From NCBI RefSeq assembly GCF_010470675.1, contig NZ_VOIQ01000012.1, positions 1 through 64,000 of the forward strand: DNA of 64,000 bases. Direction: 5' to 3'. A program made the position numbers and the translations under genes. Under the pieces are notes generated by a model. The model was not told the origin of the DNA, ran no database searches, and worked only from the letters and a program-made list of their open reading frames with translations. Position 1 is the first letter of the stretch. Each line of letters opens with the position of its first letter. The stretch is from Desulfovibrio sp. JC010. Its GTDB lineage: Bacteria > Desulfobacterota > Desulfovibrionia > Desulfovibrionales > Desulfovibrionaceae. Shown one piece after another: positions 25,214 to 34,222 of this stretch.

Positions 25214-26079
25214 GGGGCTAAATCCGTCTGAAATCGTCTAAAATTGGCTGAAATCGGGAATAAGTCTGAAATTGGCAGTATCCAGCCCGTTTCGGTTGCA
25301 TTCAGGCTCCTTCAGTCTTTATGGTTAAGGTAAAATTAACGGGCATAATTGTTATTTTGATCAGAATTTAATAGTTCTTCTTTTCACAATTAACTTGGTT
25401 TTTGCCTTGTATCTGCTTATTTTAGCAGTAATTTTATTTGCCATACCCGGAATAGAGGTCCTCTGATTGATTATTCGATCAATCGCAGAGGGGTTTTGTT
25501 ACTGCTGTTGGTAAAAATTTTAAGTAGAAATCCTTTGTTTATAGGGTCTGCGGAGTGTCAAGTGTTGTAAATGTTAGTTTATTCAAGTGTTTATCTTTTG
25601 TTCTAAAGTGACAATTGGCTCAGCCCTTTATTTTACAGGCTTCTCAGGCATATTTATGGTGAGTGAAAATTTATAAATAAATTATGTTTTTTTGATTATT
25701 TTGAAAAAATAACGCTAAATCAGTTGGTTATGTTTCAAATGTCACAGGTGAGTTAAAAAGTTACTTATTGAAATAATGAGTAAGAAAAAATGTGACAATG
25801 AGAGAAATGAGGAAATTTTATGGAATTTGAAGATTTCTTATAAAATAGCTGTGGAAAAAGTTTTCCACAGCTGTTGATAAAAAGTGTTGTGATGTGGCTT
25901 AAGCTTGATTTCCCAGTGCTCGCCACGCTTTTCTGTCTCTGAACCAGATTCTCGCGGGTAAGGGGAAAGTTTATATAATACAATGTGTTAGGCTGTAGAA
26001 AACAAATGGGAAAACATTGCGTGTCCGTAGCCTTATCAAGAGTTGATACTCTCCTTCAATCTGACTTAGGTAACCCCTC
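25214..26079 (+). other. AT-rich intergenic region with DnaA-like boxes upstream of dnaA (possible replication origin)
   Basis: This gene-free stretch of 866 bp is strongly AT-rich (especially 25640-25860). Just before dnaA it contains inverted TGTGGAAAA/TTTTCCACA boxes (25850-25858 and 25861-25869) and a one-mismatch box TGTTGATAA (25872-25880). AT-rich DNA next to DnaA-like boxes and dnaA is the usual layout of a bacterial origin. Here dnaN and gyrB are not neighbours, so it may be only an autoregulatory region. A small hairpin (CCTCTGATTGATT...AATCGCAGAGG) lies at 25460-25490. Confidence 0.5.
25847..25872. promoter_or_regulatory. 26-bp perfect palindrome of two inverted DnaA-like boxes
   Basis: AGCTGTGGAAAA-AG-TTTTCCACAGCT is symmetric. 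Each arm holds a nonamer one base away from the DnaA consensus TGTGGATAA. It is about 200 bp upstream of dnaA, so it may serve origin firing or dnaA autoregulation. Confidence 0.6.
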
Positions 26080-27441
26080 ATGATGAGAGACAGCTGGAAT
26101 AAAATTTTAAAATTTCTTGAGAAGGGCCTGAACCCCGGTCTGTACAAAGTATGGATCAAGCCCCTGAAAGCGGAAGTGAGCAGCAATAGTATTAAATTGT
26201 ATGCTCCTAACGATTTCGTGGCCGCATGGGTCAGAGACCGTCTCATGGAAAATATCAAAGAAGCAGGCGAGCAGGTTCTCGGCACCAGCCCCAAGGTGGA
26301 GATTGGGGTGCGGAAGTCCGTAGAAAAGCCCGCAGCAAAGGCCGCTCCGGCCAAGCCTGCTGTAGCACGTCCGGTTCAGACAAGCATGGGGCTGCCCATG
26401 ATGTCTTCAGCCGTGGTTAATACCCGTATTCCCCGTTGGCGTTTTTCTTTCGATGATTTCGTGATCGGCGAGTCCAACAGACTTGCCTGTGCTGCATCCA
26501 GAAGTCTCTGCGACAACTCCCTGCCCGGTGATCAGCTCTTCATGAGCTCCGCACCCGGTCTGGGAAAAACCCATCTGCTGCATTCCATCGGCAAGAATCT
26601 ATGTGCTTCCAGTAACAAGAAGCACATTTCCATTGCCTGTCTTACAGCGGAAGAGTTTGCGAACAGAATGGTTCTGGCCCTGAAAGCGGGTGAAATTTCC
26701 CGTTTCAAGTCTGAATTCAGGGACAATGTGGACTGCCTGCTGCTGGAAGATATCCATTTCTTCCAAGGCAAGCAGAAGATGCAGGATGAAATTCTGGAAA
26801 CCCTGAAGAGCCTGCAGCTACGCGGTTCCAAAGTGGTCATGACCAGTTCTTTCCTGCCCCGCGAGCTGGACAAAGTTGATCAGCAGCTTGTTTCCCGTTT
26901 CAGTTCGGGGCTGCTGGCTCTTATTTCCACCCCGGATTTCGAGACCAGAAAGAAAATCGTTGAAAGCAAGGCCATGCGTCTGGGAACTCATGTTCCGGAT
27001 TCCATTTCCGAGCTGCTGGCGGACCGTATTACCACCGATGTAAGACAGCTGGAAAGCTGCCTGCAGAACCTCGTGCTCAAGGCAAGACTTTTAAACCGTG
27101 ATGTTTCGCAGGAACTGGCCTGGCAGGTATTGGAAAACTATTCCATTGCCAAGGCCGCGCCCAGCTATGATTCCATCGTGGATCACATCTGCAGTTCCTA
27201 CGAGCTTACACCTGAACAACTGCGTTCGAAAAGCCGTAAACGTCAGATCGTACTGGCCAGAAACACCGCTTTCTTCCTCGCCCGCAAACATACCGAACTT
27301 TCCCTCAAGGATATCGGAACCAGACTGGGCCGCAGACATTCCACAGTAATCAAAGGTATCACCAATATAGAACGCGAAATTTCCCTGCAGACTCCTCTCG
27401 GAAGGCAGTTGCAGGACACTATCGACAGACTGACTCCTTAG
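26080..27441 (+). CDS. dnaA: Divergent chromosomal replication initiator DnaA
   Basis: A 453-residue full-length DnaA. Domain I is residues 1-75, an Ala/Pro-rich linker 80-115, the AAA+ domain about 118-340 and the DNA-binding domain IV from 350. Walker A reads SSAPGLGKTHLL (usual GGVGLGKTHL) and Walker B LLLEDIHFF (usual IDDIQFL). The Arg-finger SRF and the sensor II segment DVRQLESCL are kept. Domain IV has a basic loop (KSRKR) and RRHSTVIKG in place of the common DHTTV signature. It should bind ATP and DnaA boxes. The sequence differences suggest a divergent or second DnaA. The start may be ATG 26080 or 26083. Confidence 0.88.
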   Translation: MMRDSWNKILKFLEKGLNPGLYKVWIKPLKAEVSSNSIKLYAPNDFVAAWVRDRLMENIKEAGEQVLGTSPKVEIGVRKSVEKPAAKAAPAKPAVARPVQTSMGLPMMSSAVVNTRIPRWRFSFDDFVIGESNRLACAASRSLCDNSLPGDQLFMSSAPGLGKTHLLHSIGKNLCASSNKKHISIACLTAEEFANRMVLALKAGEISRFKSEFRDNVDCLLLEDIHFFQGKQKMQDEILETLKSLQLRGSKVVMTSSFLPRELDKVDQQLVSRFSSGLLALISTPDFETRKKIVESKAMRLGTHVPDSISELLADRITTDVRQLESCLQNLVLKARLLNRDVSQELAWQVLENYSIAKAAPSYDSIVDHICSSYELTPEQLRSKSRKRQIVLARNTAFFLARKHTELSLKDIGTRLGRRHSTVIKGITNIEREISLQTPLGRQLQDTIDRLTP

Positions 27442-27449
27442 TCAGGCGG

Positions 27450-27592
27450 CCTAAAAGCATCAGCTGCTTTTTCGCTGCAAAAAAGCCGGAAAATCACGTA
27501 TCAATATACGTTTCGTTCCTGCTTTTTTGATCTTTAGCGTTTCAAAAATTCGAAAAAGAGTGACAGCTTCGTGCTGTTTGCTCTTTTTCGGG
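27450..27592 (+). terminator. Cluster of hairpins between dnaA and the DnaA-like gene
   Basis: Three stem-loops follow one another. AAAGCA/TGCTTT lies at 27452-27471. A longer one has arms AAAAAAGC (27479-27486) and GCTTTTTT (27521-27528) with an inner ACGTAT/ATACGT stem, and its T-run makes it the likely dnaA terminator. The third is CGAAAAAGAG/CTCTTTTTCG (27551-27590) enclosing ACAGC/GCTGT. Confidence 0.55.
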
Positions 27593-27675
27593 TTTGGGGA
27601 TATTCATTGCAACCGGTTTGGATATGTCTTTTGACGGTCTGTTTTTATCACAGGCCCTAATTGCAGAGGTAGGAA

Positions 27676-28368
27676 ATGAATTCCAACGTATGGAACTCCA
27701 TTAAGAAGAAGCTTCTTGTGCGCATAAATCCCGTGCTGGTCAGGGTCTGGGTGGAACCTTTGTCAGCGCGTTATGAAGACGGGATTGTGCAGCTTACCGC
27801 GCCCAACGAGTTCGTCATGAACTGGGTGCAGGAGCATCTGCTGGATCGCATCAAGGATGCGGCGCAGGAAGTGCTTGAGGTCAAGGTCGGGGTTACCATT
27901 GATTTGGAAAGCGGCAAAGAGGACCAGCCTCGGGAATTTATGACTGATGTGACCGCCTATTATGCCGTGAACGACATTCTGGACAGTATCAACAGGTTGA
28001 CCGGCATAGTGCGCAGCGCAAGACCTGTTGATTTTTGCGAAGAGTGTGCTGAGGCGGAAGCAGCAGAAACCGTCCAGAAGCTGGAAGTTCAGACCTTTGA
28101 TTCCATTCTCGATGCCGTGCTTGAAGCTTTCGGGGTGACTTTCCGTGAGCTTATGATGCAGGAAAATGAGCACGCTGTGCTCGCCCGCCGGGCCCTGTAT
28201 TACCTCTGCTACCGCTACGGCATCCCCGCAGATGTAGTGGCTCTGAACATGGATTGCACGGTCTCCGAAGTACGCAAGGGTGCCAAGATTCTCGAGTCTG
28301 AAATCTCCTCCGCCATCGATAACGGCGAAGACTTGGATGAGCTCTTGTTGAGAATCTTTCAGAAATAA
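27676..28368 (+). CDS. DnaA-like protein: domains I and IV without the AAA+ ATPase
   Basis: A 230-residue protein. Residues 1-75 match DnaA domain I of the neighbouring dnaA (VRINPVLVRVWVEPLSA, TAPNEFVMNWVQEHL). Residues 139-212 align with its domain IV helices (FDSILDAVLEAFGVTFREL; ARRALYYLCYRYGIPADVVAL; EVRKGAKILESEI). The whole AAA+ domain is absent. In the domain-IV-like part the basic loop KSRKR is replaced by QENEH and the box-recognition motif by MDCTVSEVRKG, so DnaA-box binding is probably lost. Domain I mediates DnaA self-association and DnaB contact, so it could modulate initiation. The ribosome-binding site is AGAGGTAGGAA. It may have its own promoter after the hairpins. Confidence 0.75.
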   Translation: MNSNVWNSIKKKLLVRINPVLVRVWVEPLSARYEDGIVQLTAPNEFVMNWVQEHLLDRIKDAAQEVLEVKVGVTIDLESGKEDQPREFMTDVTAYYAVNDILDSINRLTGIVRSARPVDFCEECAEAEAAETVQKLEVQTFDSILDAVLEAFGVTFRELMMQENEHAVLARRALYYLCYRYGIPADVVALNMDCTVSEVRKGAKILESEISSAIDNGEDLDELLLRIFQK

Positions 28369-28390
28369 TCAATATTTCAAATAAATAAAT

Positions 28391-28427
28391 CAAAACGGCA
28401 GCCCGTAAGGACTGCCGTTTTTTTATT
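28391..28427 (+). terminator. Terminator of the DnaA-like gene
   Basis: AAACGGCAG and CTGCCGTTT form the stem, followed by TTTTTTTATT on the plus strand. Confidence 0.92.
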
Positions 28428-28429
28428 AA

Positions 28430-28472
28430 GGATTCCAAAGGGGATTATCCCCTTTGGCCGCCGGAGGCGAAA
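28430..28472 (-). repeat. Short variant of a dispersed 3'-end palindromic element
   Basis: Read on the minus strand from the phoH stop: GCCTCCGGCGGC, then the palindrome CCAAAGGGGATAATCCCCTTTGG, then AATCCTTA. The order (GC-rich block, long palindrome, AATCC) is the same as in the elements at 33386, 35511 and 42283. It is placed just downstream of a gene's 3' end, like those. Confidence 0.6.
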
Positions 28473-28498
28473 TCAGATCGACAAAAGCGCGTAGCGCA

Positions 28499-29689
28499 TC
28501 ACAATCCTGTCTTCAAGACCATATCGGTAATAGGTCCGCGGGAGCGTTCGCCTTTGAGCACCATGTGGGCGTATTCTTTGTTGTTGCGTAGCTTTTTGAC
28601 CACCCAGTTGAGGCCGTTGTTGCTTTCGTTGAGGTAGGGGTTGTCCACCTGCCGGGTATCGCCGAGGCAGATGCATTTTACGCCTTCGCCCATGCGGGTT
28701 AAGAGCGAGCGTACCTCGGAGCGGGACATGTTCTGCATTTCATCGATGATGACCACGCAGTTCTCAAGGTTCATGCCCCGGATGTAGGCAATGGGCAGGA
28801 TCTCGAATTTCTTCTGGTTGAAGCGGAATTTATCGGAATCAGTATCCATGAAAATGCGGTTGGCCGGACGCTGTTCGTGCAGTTTTACGGTCAGGTCGCG
28901 TACGTAGCGCACGTAGGGTTGCATTTTTTCTTCCACGCTTCCGGGCAGGAATCCCATTTTTGCTCCGATCTCCCAGATGGGTTTGACCAGATAGACCTTT
29001 TCAAAAGGATTGTCCTTTTTTTCAAGGGCCAGATAAAGTGCGGAAGCCAGAGCCAGAAAGGTCTTACCGTATCCGGCTTCGGACTGGATGGATACAAGGT
29101 TGATGTCCTGATTGAGCATCAGCTCAAGGGCGAGGTTCTGGTAGATGTTGCGCGGTTTTACGCCCCAGACTTCGTGGGTGTAGGAAATTGTTTTGGTTTC
29201 TTTGTCGCCATAAAAAACCGGACTGCCGCTCTCCCAGCGGAAACTGTTCACGTAGGGTGTCTGTCCCTCGTCCACAAATCCGGTGTACATTTGCGAATCA
29301 GAACGGAAGGGGTCGGAATCTTTGTATTCTTCGCAGGTAAGGTTGTAAATTCCGGCCTTGATCTGGAGAATGCGGTCGTTGGTGACCAGTATGGGTTTTT
29401 CAATGGATGCGTTGAGGGCTTCCTTGAGTATGCGGTCATCCGGGCTGATATCGCCCAGCTTTTCGGCGAACTCCGGGGAAAGGATGTGTATTTTATCATC
29501 CTTGAGAATAGAACGGACCGCCTGAGAGACAATGTGTCCGATACGCGGATCTCGCTTGAGTTTATCCAGTTCGGTTATGACTGTGTAGGGAATGTGGACT
29601 TTGTTTTCCACCCCGTTGCGCAGAGCGGCGATGCATTTGGGATTTTCAATAAGTACGTTGGTGTCCAAAACGAAGTTCTTCTGACCCAT
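28499..29689 (-). CDS. PIN domain-PhoH ATPase fusion protein
   Basis: A 396-residue protein. The N-terminal PIN ribonuclease-like domain (about 1-130) has the acidic residues in VLDTNVLIEN, ITELDKLK and VTNDRIL. The PhoH P-loop ATPase follows, with Walker A QSEAGYGKTFLAL and Walker B VVIIDEMQNM. PIN-PhoH proteins are RNA-helicase/nuclease-type enzymes active in the cytoplasm. ATG 29689 is preceded by GAGGAGG; the open frame upstream to 29737 has no ribosome-binding site. Confidence 0.92.
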   Translation of the reverse strand: MGQKNFVLDTNVLIENPKCIAALRNGVENKVHIPYTVITELDKLKRDPRIGHIVSQAVRSILKDDKIHILSPEFAEKLGDISPDDRILKEALNASIEKPILVTNDRILQIKAGIYNLTCEEYKDSDPFRSDSQMYTGFVDEGQTPYVNSFRWESGSPVFYGDKETKTISYTHEVWGVKPRNIYQNLALELMLNQDINLVSIQSEAGYGKTFLALASALYLALEKKDNPFEKVYLVKPIWEIGAKMGFLPGSVEEKMQPYVRYVRDLTVKLHEQRPANRIFMDTDSDKFRFNQKKFEILPIAYIRGMNLENCVVIIDEMQNMSRSEVRSLLTRMGEGVKCICLGDTRQVDNPYLNESNNGLNWVVKKLRNNKEYAHMVLKGERSRGPITDMVLKTGL

Positions 29690-30568: not shown

Positions 30569-32494
30569 TTAAAACCTGAGCACCTGAACAATGCTTTGCA
30601 CTGGGAGTTTTCCGCAGTCAGCCGGGAGGATGATGATCCCGTTGCAAAGGCTCATAACCTTGCGGGCTGAAAGGGATTTATCCAGCAGCGGGTCAACGAA
30701 AATTTTTCCTTTTTTTTCAATGATCAGGCAGGGGCGCAGCTTTTCCCGGTCGCGTCCGCCTTTGAGTTCGTCGGTAAGAATTGCCGGGATGGTGGTGGAA
30801 ATTTCCGCCTTGCCCTGCAGCATGGAAAGCAGCGGATTGATGATGGTGTGAAAGGCGAGGTTCACTGCCACGGGCGGTCCGGGCAGTCCGATAACAATGG
30901 AGTTGCCCAGCTTGCACCCGAAGATTGATTTTGCCGGGTGCATGGCCAGTCCTTTGAAGATAGGTCTTCCTCCGGCCTGCTTAATGGAGTCGAAAACAAA
31001 ATCGCGGTTACCGGGCCCTGTGCCCCCGGTGGTGACGATTAGTCCGCAGTCACCGTTGGCCTGCATTGCTGCGGAAATGGCTTCCGGGGAGTTGGCGCAG
31101 GGCGAAATGCGCACATCATGAACCCCGTAACGGTTGCACAGGGATTTCATAAGAATGAGGTTGTCCGCCGGAATCAATCCGCATTCAGTCTTTTTTGCCG
31201 GATCGCAGAGCTCGTTGCCAACTGCCAGCACAGCCACTTTCGGCAGCGGGTTGACGGGAACAGAGCAAATCCCGGCGTAAGCGAGCAGGGCGGCGTTGCA
31301 GGGCGAAATGACTTTTCCTTTTTTTATGATGGTTTCGCCCTTTAAAATATCTGACCCGGTTCTGCGGATGAACTCGCCTTCGCTGACCGGTGAACTGATG
31401 CTGATGGTGCATTCGTCAGCCGCAACTTTTTCAAAAGGGATGACCGCGTCTGTGCCTTGCGGGATAATCCCCCCGGTGAGCACCCGTACAGCCTGTCCTG
31501 AGCTGTTTTTATCCGGCAGCGGGCATGATGGGCGTACTTCTCCGGAAAAGGCGAGCACAGCCGGATTTTCAGCAGATGCTTCTGTTGTACAGCTGCTGGC
31601 GACTGCGTATCCGTCCATGGCCGAGCGGTCGTGTTCCGGCAGGGAAATTCCTGAACACACGGTTTCGGCGGCTGCCAGCCCGGAGCAGTCCGTAACCGGG
31701 ACGTACCTGGCCTGTGCCGGGCGCAAACTTTTGCGAATGAGCTTCAGGGCCGCGCTGCGCGGGATGGAGCGCGGAAATTCATCCTGTCCGGCTTCTTCGC
31801 CGCTAAGTTTTTTGCGAATGCGGCTTAACTGGTCCGGGGTGTTTATATTGATGAATGTGTCCAGCTTTTGGTCCGTGTTTTTCAGCATATCCGTATCCAC
31901 GGTGCGGACTTTCACTTCCGGGAGGAAGCGGATGATCTGGAATATGTTCTGCTTCAGGTTTTGTTCTATAAAAGGCAGGCAGCGTTTGGAATAAACAGCG
32001 CAAAGCGGTTCATAGAATCCGTCCGGGTGGATGGGAATGACCACGTCGTCATCAGGTTCAACCCGGCTGAGCAGTTCGGCTATCAGTTCCCGGCTCAGGA
32101 AAGGGGAATCGCAGGCGGTGACGAATACGTGCTCTGTTTCAGTGTGGTAAAGGGCGGAGTGGATTCCGGTCAAAGAGCTGCGGGATTCGAAAATATCGTT
32201 CACCAGCCGAACATCAAGGTCCGGGTGGTTTTCCGGGTTGCGGGTGATGACAAAGGTTTCCGCAAAAAGTCCTTCAAGGGTGCGGATGATTCTGCTGACC
32301 AGTTTTTCACCGGAAATTTCAATGCATGATTTATCGGTCCTGCCCATGCGGCGGCCTTCGCCACCTGCTAGGATGGCAGCACTGATGCTGGGATATATTG
32401 CGTTGCTTCCGGTCATGTCTGTTTTATTGCACAAAAGGTAATTCAGTTCCATAACCTTTTTATTATGCTGAAAAAAGCCAGATGGAAGCCGCAC
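30569..32494 (-). CDS. MobA-MoeA fusion: molybdenum cofactor guanylyltransferase / molybdopterin molybdotransferase
   Basis: A bifunctional protein of up to 641 residues. The first ~235 residues form a MobA-type nucleotidyltransferase (AAILAGGEGRRMGRTDKSCI, then VTACDSPF) that attaches GMP to molybdopterin. From about 245 to the end it is MoeA: YVPVTDC, the DRSAMDGYA motif with the catalytic Asp, GTDAVIPFE and TTGGTGPGNRDFVFD. The fusion joins molybdate insertion with guanylylation in one chain, useful for formate dehydrogenases. Starts at 32494, 32452 or 32416 are all possible; none has a strong ribosome-binding site. It is divergent from the EFR1-like gene at 32600. Confidence 0.9.
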   Translation of the reverse strand: MRLPSGFFQHNKKVMELNYLLCNKTDMTGSNAIYPSISAAILAGGEGRRMGRTDKSCIEISGEKLVSRIIRTLEGLFAETFVITRNPENHPDLDVRLVNDIFESRSSLTGIHSALYHTETEHVFVTACDSPFLSRELIAELLSRVEPDDDVVIPIHPDGFYEPLCAVYSKRCLPFIEQNLKQNIFQIIRFLPEVKVRTVDTDMLKNTDQKLDTFININTPDQLSRIRKKLSGEEAGQDEFPRSIPRSAALKLIRKSLRPAQARYVPVTDCSGLAAAETVCSGISLPEHDRSAMDGYAVASSCTTEASAENPAVLAFSGEVRPSCPLPDKNSSGQAVRVLTGGIIPQGTDAVIPFEKVAADECTISISSPVSEGEFIRRTGSDILKGETIIKKGKVISPCNAALLAYAGICSVPVNPLPKVAVLAVGNELCDPAKKTECGLIPADNLILMKSLCNRYGVHDVRISPCANSPEAISAAMQANGDCGLIVTTGGTGPGNRDFVFDSIKQAGGRPIFKGLAMHPAKSIFGCKLGNSIVIGLPGPPVAVNLAFHTIINPLLSMLQGKAEISTTIPAILTDELKGGRDREKLRPCLIIEKKGKIFVDPLLDKSLSARKVMSLCNGIIILPADCGKLPVQSIVQVLRF

Positions 32495-33979: not shown

Positions 33980-34222
33980 ATGAAAATTACAGCTGAAAAT
34001 TTTGATAAAAAATTTGATGATGGAGAAGACGTTTTTGACTTCTTGGACCTTGATTCTGTCAGTCGTTTAAATACTGAAATAATACAGGTGAATGTGGATT
34101 TCCCGGCCTGGATGGTGGCAGCCCTTGACCGCGAGGCCAAGCGTCTTGGAATCAACAGGCAGGCTGTAATCAAGACATGGATTGCGCATCGAATTGATCA
34201 TGGGCAAAATGCGGATTGCTAG
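33980..34222 (+). CDS. BrnA/CopG-type ribbon-helix-helix antitoxin (orphan)
   Basis: An 80-residue DNA-binding protein. The N-terminal FDKKFDDGEDVFDFLDL is typical of BrnA-like antitoxins. The RHH domain is VNVDFPAWMVAALDREAKRL followed by GINRQAVIKTWI. Such antitoxins repress their own operon and normally follow a BrnT toxin gene. The upstream gene here is a DUF3574 lipoprotein and no BrnT-like frame is visible in 33914-33979, so it looks solitary. AAGGAG precedes the ATG. Confidence 0.8.
   Translation: MKITAENFDKKFDDGEDVFDFLDLDSVSRLNTEIIQVNVDFPAWMVAALDREAKRLGINRQAVIKTWIAHRIDHGQNADC

What the first reader, a model, noticed from the sequence alone, without database searches (positions are those of the whole stretch)
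27676..28368. A DnaA-like protein with domains I and IV but no AAA+ ATPase, encoded next to dnaA
Seen: the N-terminal ~75 residues match domain I of the adjacent DnaA, and residues 139-212 match its domain IV helices. The ~220-residue ATPase is missing, and both DNA-contact elements are altered (basic KSRKR became QENEH; the box-recognition motif is gone). Known: domain I mediates DnaA oligomerisation and DnaB loading. Inferred: this could be a built-in modulator of initiation, poisoning or bridging DnaA oligomers without ATP or DnaA-box binding. I know of no described system of this exact form.
Basis: partly seen in the sequence, partly recalled or inferred. Interest (0 to 1): 0.75.

Follow-up and report, generated by a model that had tools for sequence, protein, structure and literature searches.

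The report
DnaA-derived protein without its ATPase
A sulfate-reducing bacterial genus keeps a shortened relative of the replication starter DnaA that has lost its ATP-using motor and its usual DNA-box contacts but is strongly conserved, probably to modulate a second DnaA encoded next door and lying far from the likely replication origin.

Summary
ORF 27676-28368 (230 aa) has a DnaA domain I (DnaA_N E=2.9e-16), an unrelated linker and a diverged DnaA domain IV, supported by profile comparison, AlphaFold (pLDDT 88) and Foldseek (nine best PDB hits are DnaA, E 0.02-2). The AAA+ domain is absent; basic loop and box-recognition motif are replaced. It is no decaying dnaA: intact in 17 of 17 held genomes of the genus, always just downstream of the same dnaA, dN/dS about 0.09. 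It was found in none of 140 sampled genomes of other genera of the family.

One correction: the neighbouring dnaA is not the origin-linked one. A second DnaA lies in a dnaA-dnaN-gyrB-gyrA cluster at the GC-skew switch, clear in three of four single-contig genus genomes, weak in the fourth; the dnaA1/mini locus is about 0.7 Mb away in G016. The mini domain I is of DnaA1 type and equals DnaA1 at five partner-contact positions. Best explanation: an ATP-independent domain-I decoy or adaptor (inferred, 0.42). No listed paper describes it.

The parts
27676..28368 (+). mini-DnaA gene: 230 aa, domain I + linker + diverged domain IV, no AAA+
   Evidence: ORF; Pfam; AlphaFold and Foldseek; present in 17 of 17 held genus genomes
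27676..27909 (+). domain I (residues 1-78): alpha1-alpha2-beta1-beta2-alpha3-beta3; W6, W25, F46, W50 invariant
   Evidence: DnaA_N E=2.9e-16; hhalign to DnaA1 E=8.3e-15; Foldseek 4tps; residue counts
27910..28089 (+). linker (residues 79-138), acidic in the 12 genomes scored, low-confidence model with one possible helix (93-113); no detectable relation to DnaA1
   Evidence: pLDDT under 50 for residues 81-136; no hhalign match; charges; dN/dS 0.18
28090..28365 (+). domain IV-like helical domain (residues 139-230): six helices, acidic, HTH segment VALNMDCTVSEV in place of the box-recognition motif
   Evidence: Bac_DnaA_C best E 2.5e-5 among 17; pLDDT 88; nine best PDB hits are DnaA; charges
26080..27441 (+). 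dnaA1: full-length DnaA paralogue (453 aa) with AAA+; off-origin neighbour, same domain-I type
   Evidence: Pfam; TIGR00362 344.4 bits against cut-off 343.9; no GC-skew switch here
25850..25880 (.). three DnaA-box-like 9-mers 11 bp apart (TTTTCCACA -, TTTTCCACA +, TTATCAACA -) about 230 bp upstream of dnaA1
   Evidence: a TTWTNCACA box at -229/-230 in 11 of 12 genus genomes examined (6 of 12 also have the second strict box)
27551..27590 (+). long terminator-like hairpin between dnaA1 and the mini gene, one exact pattern match in this genome
   Evidence: fold z=-6.3 for 27445-27600; terminator scan; genome-wide pattern search
27600..27675 (+). partly conserved stretch upstream of the mini gene (ATATTCATTGCA..CCGG) plus ribosome-binding-like AGAGGTAGGAA: candidate leader, promoter not proven
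   Evidence: alignment of 12 intergenic regions; the sigma-70 scan found no promoter upstream of the gene

Best explanation
A genus-specific, ATP-independent paralogue of DnaA1 that works as a domain-I decoy or adaptor. Shown: it has a DnaA1-type domain I with the residues that in other bacteria contact helicase or regulators, no ATPase, no canonical DnaA-box contacts, an acidic domain IV, and strong purifying selection. Inferred: it binds what DnaA1's domain I binds (helicase, the DciA loader, a regulator, or DnaA1 itself). It would thereby reduce or redirect the helicase-recruiting or assembly activity of DnaA1, and possibly of the origin DnaA, independently of ATP state and DnaA boxes. Its repurposed acidic HTH domain would supply a second, so far unknown, contact.
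For: Domain I of DnaA1 type: one clade with support 95/99, on the DnaA1 side of a long branch from DnaA2. Contact positions L21, W25, N44, F46 and W50 equal DnaA1 (17 of 17 mini proteins, N44 in 16 of 17; 12 of 12 DnaA1). In E. coli F46 contacts DnaB, and W25, N44, F46 and W50 matter for DiaA; B. subtilis SirA uses the counterparts of W25, N44 and F46 (PMC5448010, passages read; counterparts read off the alignment). dN/dS 0.036 in domain I and 0.060 in domain IV (medians of 10 and 7 pairs). Domain IV charge -7 to -12 in 12 mini proteins against +6 to +8 in the 10 of 12 DnaA1s scored. Adjacent, same strand, in 17 of 17 genomes. DciA is present in this genome.
Against: No interaction or phenotype data. 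Position 21, a Glu that contacts DnaB in E. coli, is Leu in both mini and DnaA1, so the partner may not be DnaB. The invariant DCTVS segment in domain IV could equally be a DNA-binding element of new specificity. A terminator-like hairpin separates the mini gene from dnaA1, so co-expression is not assured.
Confidence: 0.42

Rival explanations
1. A DNA-binding adaptor or transcription regulator: the domain IV HTH was re-targeted to a new sequence, and domain I tethers DnaA1 or helicase factors to those sites.
For: The HTH fold is kept and N191, D193, C194, T195, V196 and S197 are invariant in 17 of 17. Three of 17 cut-out domains show weak similarity to sigma-70 region 4 (best E 0.14).
Against: Domain IV is strongly acidic (-7 to -12 in 12 genomes), and the place of DnaA's basic loop carries no K or R in 16 of 17 orthologues (the exception, L020, reads SEDTKEVR). 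No binding-site search was made.
Confidence: 0.27
2. A regulator of the origin-linked DnaA2 and oriC rather than of DnaA1.
For: The GC-skew switch lies at dnaA2-dnaN-gyrB-gyrA in the single-contig genus genomes examined (clear in G001, G003, G016, weak in G015), so initiation control should act there. F and W at the alpha3 contact positions look retained in DnaA2 (my reading of the sequences printed).
Against: The domain I of DnaA2 is very distant from that of mini and gives no DnaA_N match at E<=1e-5. In the 11 genus genomes where dnaA2 was located, mini is on another contig or more than 500 kb away.
Confidence: 0.14
3. A function outside replication (for example a scaffold), using DnaA folds only as a chassis.
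For: There is precedent for a DnaA-domain protein with another role: Streptomyces SCO2102, reported to carry a DnaA II domain (PMC9099993, passages read).
Against: Synteny with dnaA1 in 17 of 17 genomes, and the known partner-contact residues of domain I are retained.
Confidence: 0.13
4. A decayed dnaA duplicate without function.
For: It resembles a dnaA1-type duplicate that lost the ATPase.
Against: Intact in 17 of 17 genomes with dN/dS about 0.09 overall.
Confidence: 0.02

Closest known systems
DnaA initiator (TIGR00362; Pfam DnaA_N + Bac_DnaA + Bac_DnaA_C)
   Same: Shares domain I and the domain IV fold in the same order; its domain I is of DnaA1 type
   Different: No AAA+ ATPase, no basic loop, no box-recognition motif; 36.8 bits against a 343.9-bit cut-off
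Proteins carrying only a DnaA C-terminal domain: phage proteins in BFVD and perhaps the short NCBIfam models NF004687/NF004688 (PRK06030, 140 and 123 positions), which match domain IV of DnaA2
   Same: DnaA domain IV fold in a short protein
   Different: Fold matches only, best E 2.9e-3; none was shown here to have a domain I as well; no relative of the whole protein in phage records or viral contigs
NF005206 (PRK06672, hypothetical protein, 341 positions)
   Same: A family not named DnaA whose model matches mini residues 4-82 (E=1.6e-5)
   Different: The match lies at positions 193-271 of a longer model; mini's domain IV is not matched
Domain-I-binding regulators SirA, DiaA, HobA, YfdR (PMC5448010 passages; YfdR paper seen in the listing)
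   Same: What it may work like: control of DnaA through domain I
   Different: These bind domain I from outside; the present protein is itself a copy of domain I
Hda / HdaA
   Same: A DnaA-derived truncated paralogue that regulates DnaA (recalled)
   Different: Hda keeps the AAA+ domain and lacks I and IV (recalled); this is the reverse; no Hda model is among the four listed for the mini protein
DciA helicase loader
   Same: Its N-terminal domain resembles DnaA domain I in structure (recalled); weak Foldseek hits to V. cholerae DciA, E 0.32
   Different: No PF05258 match in the mini protein; DciA is a separate gene in this genome

Membership tests
DnaA initiator | AAA+ ATPase domain with Walker motifs | tested here: not met
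   No Bac_DnaA or AAA match in the mini protein, though found in the neighbour; linker unrelated to DnaA1
DnaA initiator | Score over the TIGR00362 cut-off | tested here: not met
   36.8 against 343.9 bits
DnaA_N (domain I) family | Score over the Pfam gathering cut-off and the domain I fold | tested here: met
   59.4 against 24.6 bits; fold match to 4tps and 2e0g
Bac_DnaA_C (domain IV) family | Score over the Pfam gathering cut-off | tested here: not met
   15.8 bits for the whole protein, 18.1 for the domain alone, cut-off 31.5
Bac_DnaA_C (domain IV) family | Six-helix domain IV fold | tested here: met
   pLDDT 88; the nine best PDB hits are all DnaA, TM 0.61-0.75, E 0.02-2
Bac_DnaA_C (domain IV) family | DnaA-box contacts (basic loop, RDH-T-type motif; the contact role is recalled) | tested here: not met
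   QENEH-type loop and DCTVS segment in orthologues
Hda | AAA+ domain related to DnaA | tested here: not met
   No AAA+ match and no Hda model among the four listed
DciA | PF05258 domain | tested here: not met
   No match; a separate DciA gene exists
DnaA-regulating proteins acting through domain I | Physical binding to DnaA domain I and an effect on initiation | not testable with these tools
   Needs protein and genetic experiments

The most novel reading that the evidence does not exclude
This genus has a three-part DnaA system: an origin-linked DnaA2, an off-origin DnaA1 with its own conserved DnaA-box cluster, and a dedicated ATPase-less DnaA1 paralogue. The paralogue forms mixed domain-I assemblies or occupies domain-I partners, giving ATP-independent, box-independent control of replication initiation built from the initiator itself.
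Probability: 0.33. Interest if true: 0.8.

Novelty: new variant of a known kind. Interest (0 to 1): 0.6.

Why it matters
The DnaA control known to me acts on its ATP state, on its sites, or through unrelated proteins that bind domain I or III. A conserved chromosomal paralogue made only of domains I and IV would be a natural experiment in which domain I signalling is separated from ATP and box binding. It also points to a family with two DnaA genes (two domain IV matches over the cut-off in 22 of 22 family genomes searched), where DnaA1 begins within the first 600 bases of contig 1 in 7 of them (G086, G089, G104, G117, G125, G151, G162) although it is not at the GC-skew switch where both sides were checked. 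That makes the division of labour between two initiators testable.

Tried and rejected
Decay of a dnaA copy: rejected by 17 of 17 intact orthologues and low dN/dS. Mobile or phage origin: tblastn found nothing at E<=1e-5 in 50,697 phage records or 72,556 plasmid records, and a viral-contig scan gave 44 pattern matches but no confirmed relative; structure search found phage DnaA-C proteins only as fold matches with E above 0.001; PHROGs gave two weak families of unknown function (best E 0.013). Linker as a remnant of the AAA+ lid: suggested by a TDV motif, not supported by hhalign (E=0.49 against 0.59 for a reversed control). Anti-phage defence: no PADLOC match. Known RNA element: no Rfam match in 25400-28600. 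A consensus sigma-70 promoter just upstream: none found by the scan, whose one hit lies at the gene's end, and my own search gave no consistent -35/-10 across 12 genomes. A mini-like gene downstream of dnaA1 in nine genomes of other genera: none seen by eye in the listed ORFs of 100 aa or more. A phylum-wide search for other ATPase-less DnaA_N proteins (296 genomes) listed only part of its matches, so it cannot exclude analogues. Short frames in other genera (G019, G169, G072) were checked and reach contig edges. The pdb_via library was not available.

Full report
What is there. The ORF at 27676-28368 encodes 230 aa. Pfam places DnaA_N at residues 4-65 with E=2.9e-16 and a weak Bac_DnaA_C at 142-181 (15.8 bits, below the 31.5-bit cut-off); the adjacent ORF 26080-27441 has all three DnaA domains. 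Only DnaA_N passes its Pfam cut-off in the mini protein, and no AAA+ family appears. A 17-row orthologue alignment (A1) compared with 12 neighbouring DnaA1 proteins by hhalign gives two collinear matches, domain I (E=8.3e-15, probability 98) and domain IV (E=4.9e-5, probability 68); the linker gives nothing better than a reversed control (E 0.49 against 0.59). With the domains cut out, domain IV gives E=2.8e-7, probability 93, and 17 of 17 orthologues match Bac_DnaA_C at E<=1, best 2.5e-5. Against my reading: profiles searched against PDB sequences find domain I but not domain IV of DnaA.

Fold. AlphaFold on A1 gave pLDDT 66 overall and pTM 0.41, about 70-85 in domain I and most of domain IV, and under 50 at residues 81-136. 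Foldseek against the PDB returned DnaA domain I (4tps, E=9.8e-5; 2e0g) and the M. tuberculosis DnaA-DBD (3pvp, E=9.7e-3, probability 1.00) for the same model. Domain IV alone folded at pLDDT 88.2, pTM 0.78. Its nine best PDB hits are all DnaA, TM 0.61-0.75, although no E-value is under 0.001. I take the domain IV assignment as established by sequence profile and fold together; neither alone would be decisive.

What was lost. In DnaA1 the basic loop reads SKSRKRQ in 12 of 12 genomes and the recognition segment RRHSTV in 12 of 12 (GRRHSTV in 11). In the 17 mini proteins the loop position reads QENEH, QETDH and the like, and the recognition position reads N-x-DCTVS in 17 of 17. Net charge of domain IV is -7 to -12 in the 12 mini proteins scored, against +6 to +8 in the 10 DnaA1 proteins where the script located the domain; two DnaA1 rows failed and were not scored. 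DnaA1 itself has R where the four DnaA chains in the printed alignments have D, a further reason to see DnaA1 as specialised.

What was kept. W6, W25, F46 and W50 are invariant in 17 mini and 12 DnaA1 proteins; N44 is kept in 16 of 17 and 12 of 12; L21 is shared by all. A review (PMC5448010, passages read) gives W6 as critical for E. coli domain I dimerisation, E21 and F46 as DnaB contacts, E21, W25, N44, F46 and W50 as important for DiaA, and W27, N47, F49 and A50 of B. subtilis for SirA. So the mini protein carries the same partner face as DnaA1 at these positions. The dimer patch is partly changed: K10 in 17 of 17 mini, L10 in 12 of 12 DnaA1.

Conservation. In the genus, 17 of 17 held genomes have the gene. 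In all 17 it lies just downstream of dnaA1 on the same strand (coordinates). In 149 genomes of the family, 9 of the genus and 140 of others, the profile found the full protein only in the 9. The other 102 genomes with a hit have partial matches, nearly all to domain I, in frames of 450 aa or more, the size of DnaA (not annotated one by one), except three short frames that reach contig edges (G019, G169, G072); 38 genomes had no hit. A very diverged homologue could be missed, since the same profile does not find DnaA2. Nei-Gojobori dN/dS (medians over those of 10 chosen pairs, of 66 possible, that gave a finite value) is 0.087 for the whole gene (9 pairs), 0.036 for domain I (10), 0.18 for the linker (8) and 0.060 for domain IV (7); DnaA1 gives 0.043 (10). 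Median synonymous distances are 0.7-1.3 for the mini gene, so the ratios are rough, but purifying selection on both domains is clear. The two named relatives are recorded as Desulfovibrio sp. and have contig lengths equal to contigs of G009 and G006. That the genus is what is now called Maridesulfovibrio, and that G016 (4,289,847 bases) is D. salexigens, is my recall.

The neighbour is not the origin DnaA. The genome holds a second full-length DnaA on contig 4, followed by dnaN, gyrB and gyrA (Pfam), the classical replication operon apart from recF (order as given in PMC5109545, passages read). In the sampled stretches of G016 the GC skew is positive from the record start to 2.0 Mb, negative from 2.2 to 4.21 Mb, and mostly positive again from about 4.24 Mb, so it switches within a few kb of dnaA2 at 4.234 Mb; the record start carries parA- and parB-like genes. 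At dnaA1, about 685 kb away, skew is uniform. In the window it is positive on both sides of dnaA1. With about 20 kb on each side, the switch at dnaA2 is also seen in G001 and G003, more weakly in G015, and in other genera in G151 and G125, less sharply in G104; it is not clear in G089. This is an inference about the origin, not a mapped origin. TIGR00362 scores DnaA1 at 344.4, just over its cut-off of 343.9, but DnaA2 at 298.6, below it.

Origin of the gene. A tree of 53 domain I sequences puts all 17 mini proteins in one clade (95/99), on the DnaA1 side of a very long branch from DnaA2, but does not fix the place within the DnaA1-type sequences. It has only 80 columns, its bootstrap had not settled, and the tool warns of long branches meeting and of several long rows. 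The simplest history is one duplication of a DnaA1-type gene with loss of the ATPase, then fixation in the genus (inference).

The locus. About 230 bp upstream of dnaA1 lie three DnaA-box-like 9-mers 11 bp apart (window 25850-25880). A TTWTNCACA box sits at -229 or -230 in 11 of 12 genus genomes; G004 has none. In six genomes of other genera TTTTCCACA sits at -225 to -235 in four, and looser boxes at -231 to -263 in two. In 26 sampled G016 stretches (520 kb, 10 kb of it counted twice) it was the only cluster of three within 45 bp, against a background of 0.24 loose boxes per kb. In the 700 bases upstream of dnaA2 strict boxes number none (G000) and one (G016). Between dnaA1 and the mini gene is a long hairpin with a T-rich tail, with one exact match in this genome and exact matches in the loci of five other genus genomes (G003, G007, G009, G010, G016). 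The 70 bases before the mini gene are partly conserved. This suggests separate expression, unproven.

Mechanism. Most likely the protein competes for, or bridges, whatever DnaA1's domain I binds, independent of ATP and DnaA boxes, with the acidic HTH domain giving a second contact (confidence 0.42). The chief rival is a re-targeted DNA-binding adaptor (0.27), supported by the invariant DCTVS segment but weighed down by charge. The steps shown here are anatomy, likely descent, conservation and position; every binding step is inferred.

Literature. Full-text searches for DnaA paralogues, truncated DnaA, DnaA_N/Bac_DnaA_C and Desulfovibrio dnaA listed no paper that by title or abstract start describes such a protein or the two-DnaA arrangement in this family. 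Two listings were partial (15 of 1,358; 15 of 25). Beyond listings I read passages of PMC10384521, PMC5448010, PMC9099993 and PMC5109545. The library holds open-licence papers only, so absence there is weak evidence. Nearest in kind are phage proteins with a DnaA C-terminal domain, NCBIfam NF005206 with a DnaA domain I match in a longer model, and Streptomyces SCO2102, reported to reuse a DnaA domain II.

Verdict. I rate it a new variant of a known kind, a DnaA-derived protein without AAA+, with real interest because it is conserved and tied to an unexplained second DnaA.

Noticed in passing
G000 contig 4:195855-197159 (L080:9855-11159); L076:3900-5204; L096:18222-19547; L109:18391-19665: 22 of 22 same-family genomes searched have two Bac_DnaA_C matches over the cut-off. 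The DnaA next to dnaN-gyrB-gyrA sits at the GC-skew switch in most complete genomes checked, yet scores below the TIGR00362 cut-off in this genome.
   Followed up: partly
window 25850-25880: Three DnaA-box-like 9-mers at 11-bp spacing about 230 bp upstream of dnaA1, conserved in the genus and traceable in other genera, although this locus is not at the GC-skew switch; strict boxes just upstream of dnaA2 are few.
   Followed up: partly
window 27551-27590: Long, nearly perfect hairpin with a T-rich tail between dnaA1 and the mini gene; one exact match in this genome, exact matches in five other genus genomes with a variable loop, not matched in the rest of the loci.
   Followed up: partly
window 30569-32494 (-): One ORF joins a MobA-like nucleotidyltransferase and MoeA domains (Pfam NTP_transf_3, MoeA_N, MoCF_biosynth): probably a fused molybdenum cofactor enzyme.
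   Followed up: no
window 33980-34222 (+): Small ORF with a weak CopG-antitoxin match (E=4e-4, under the curated cut-off); no partner was sought.
   Followed up: no
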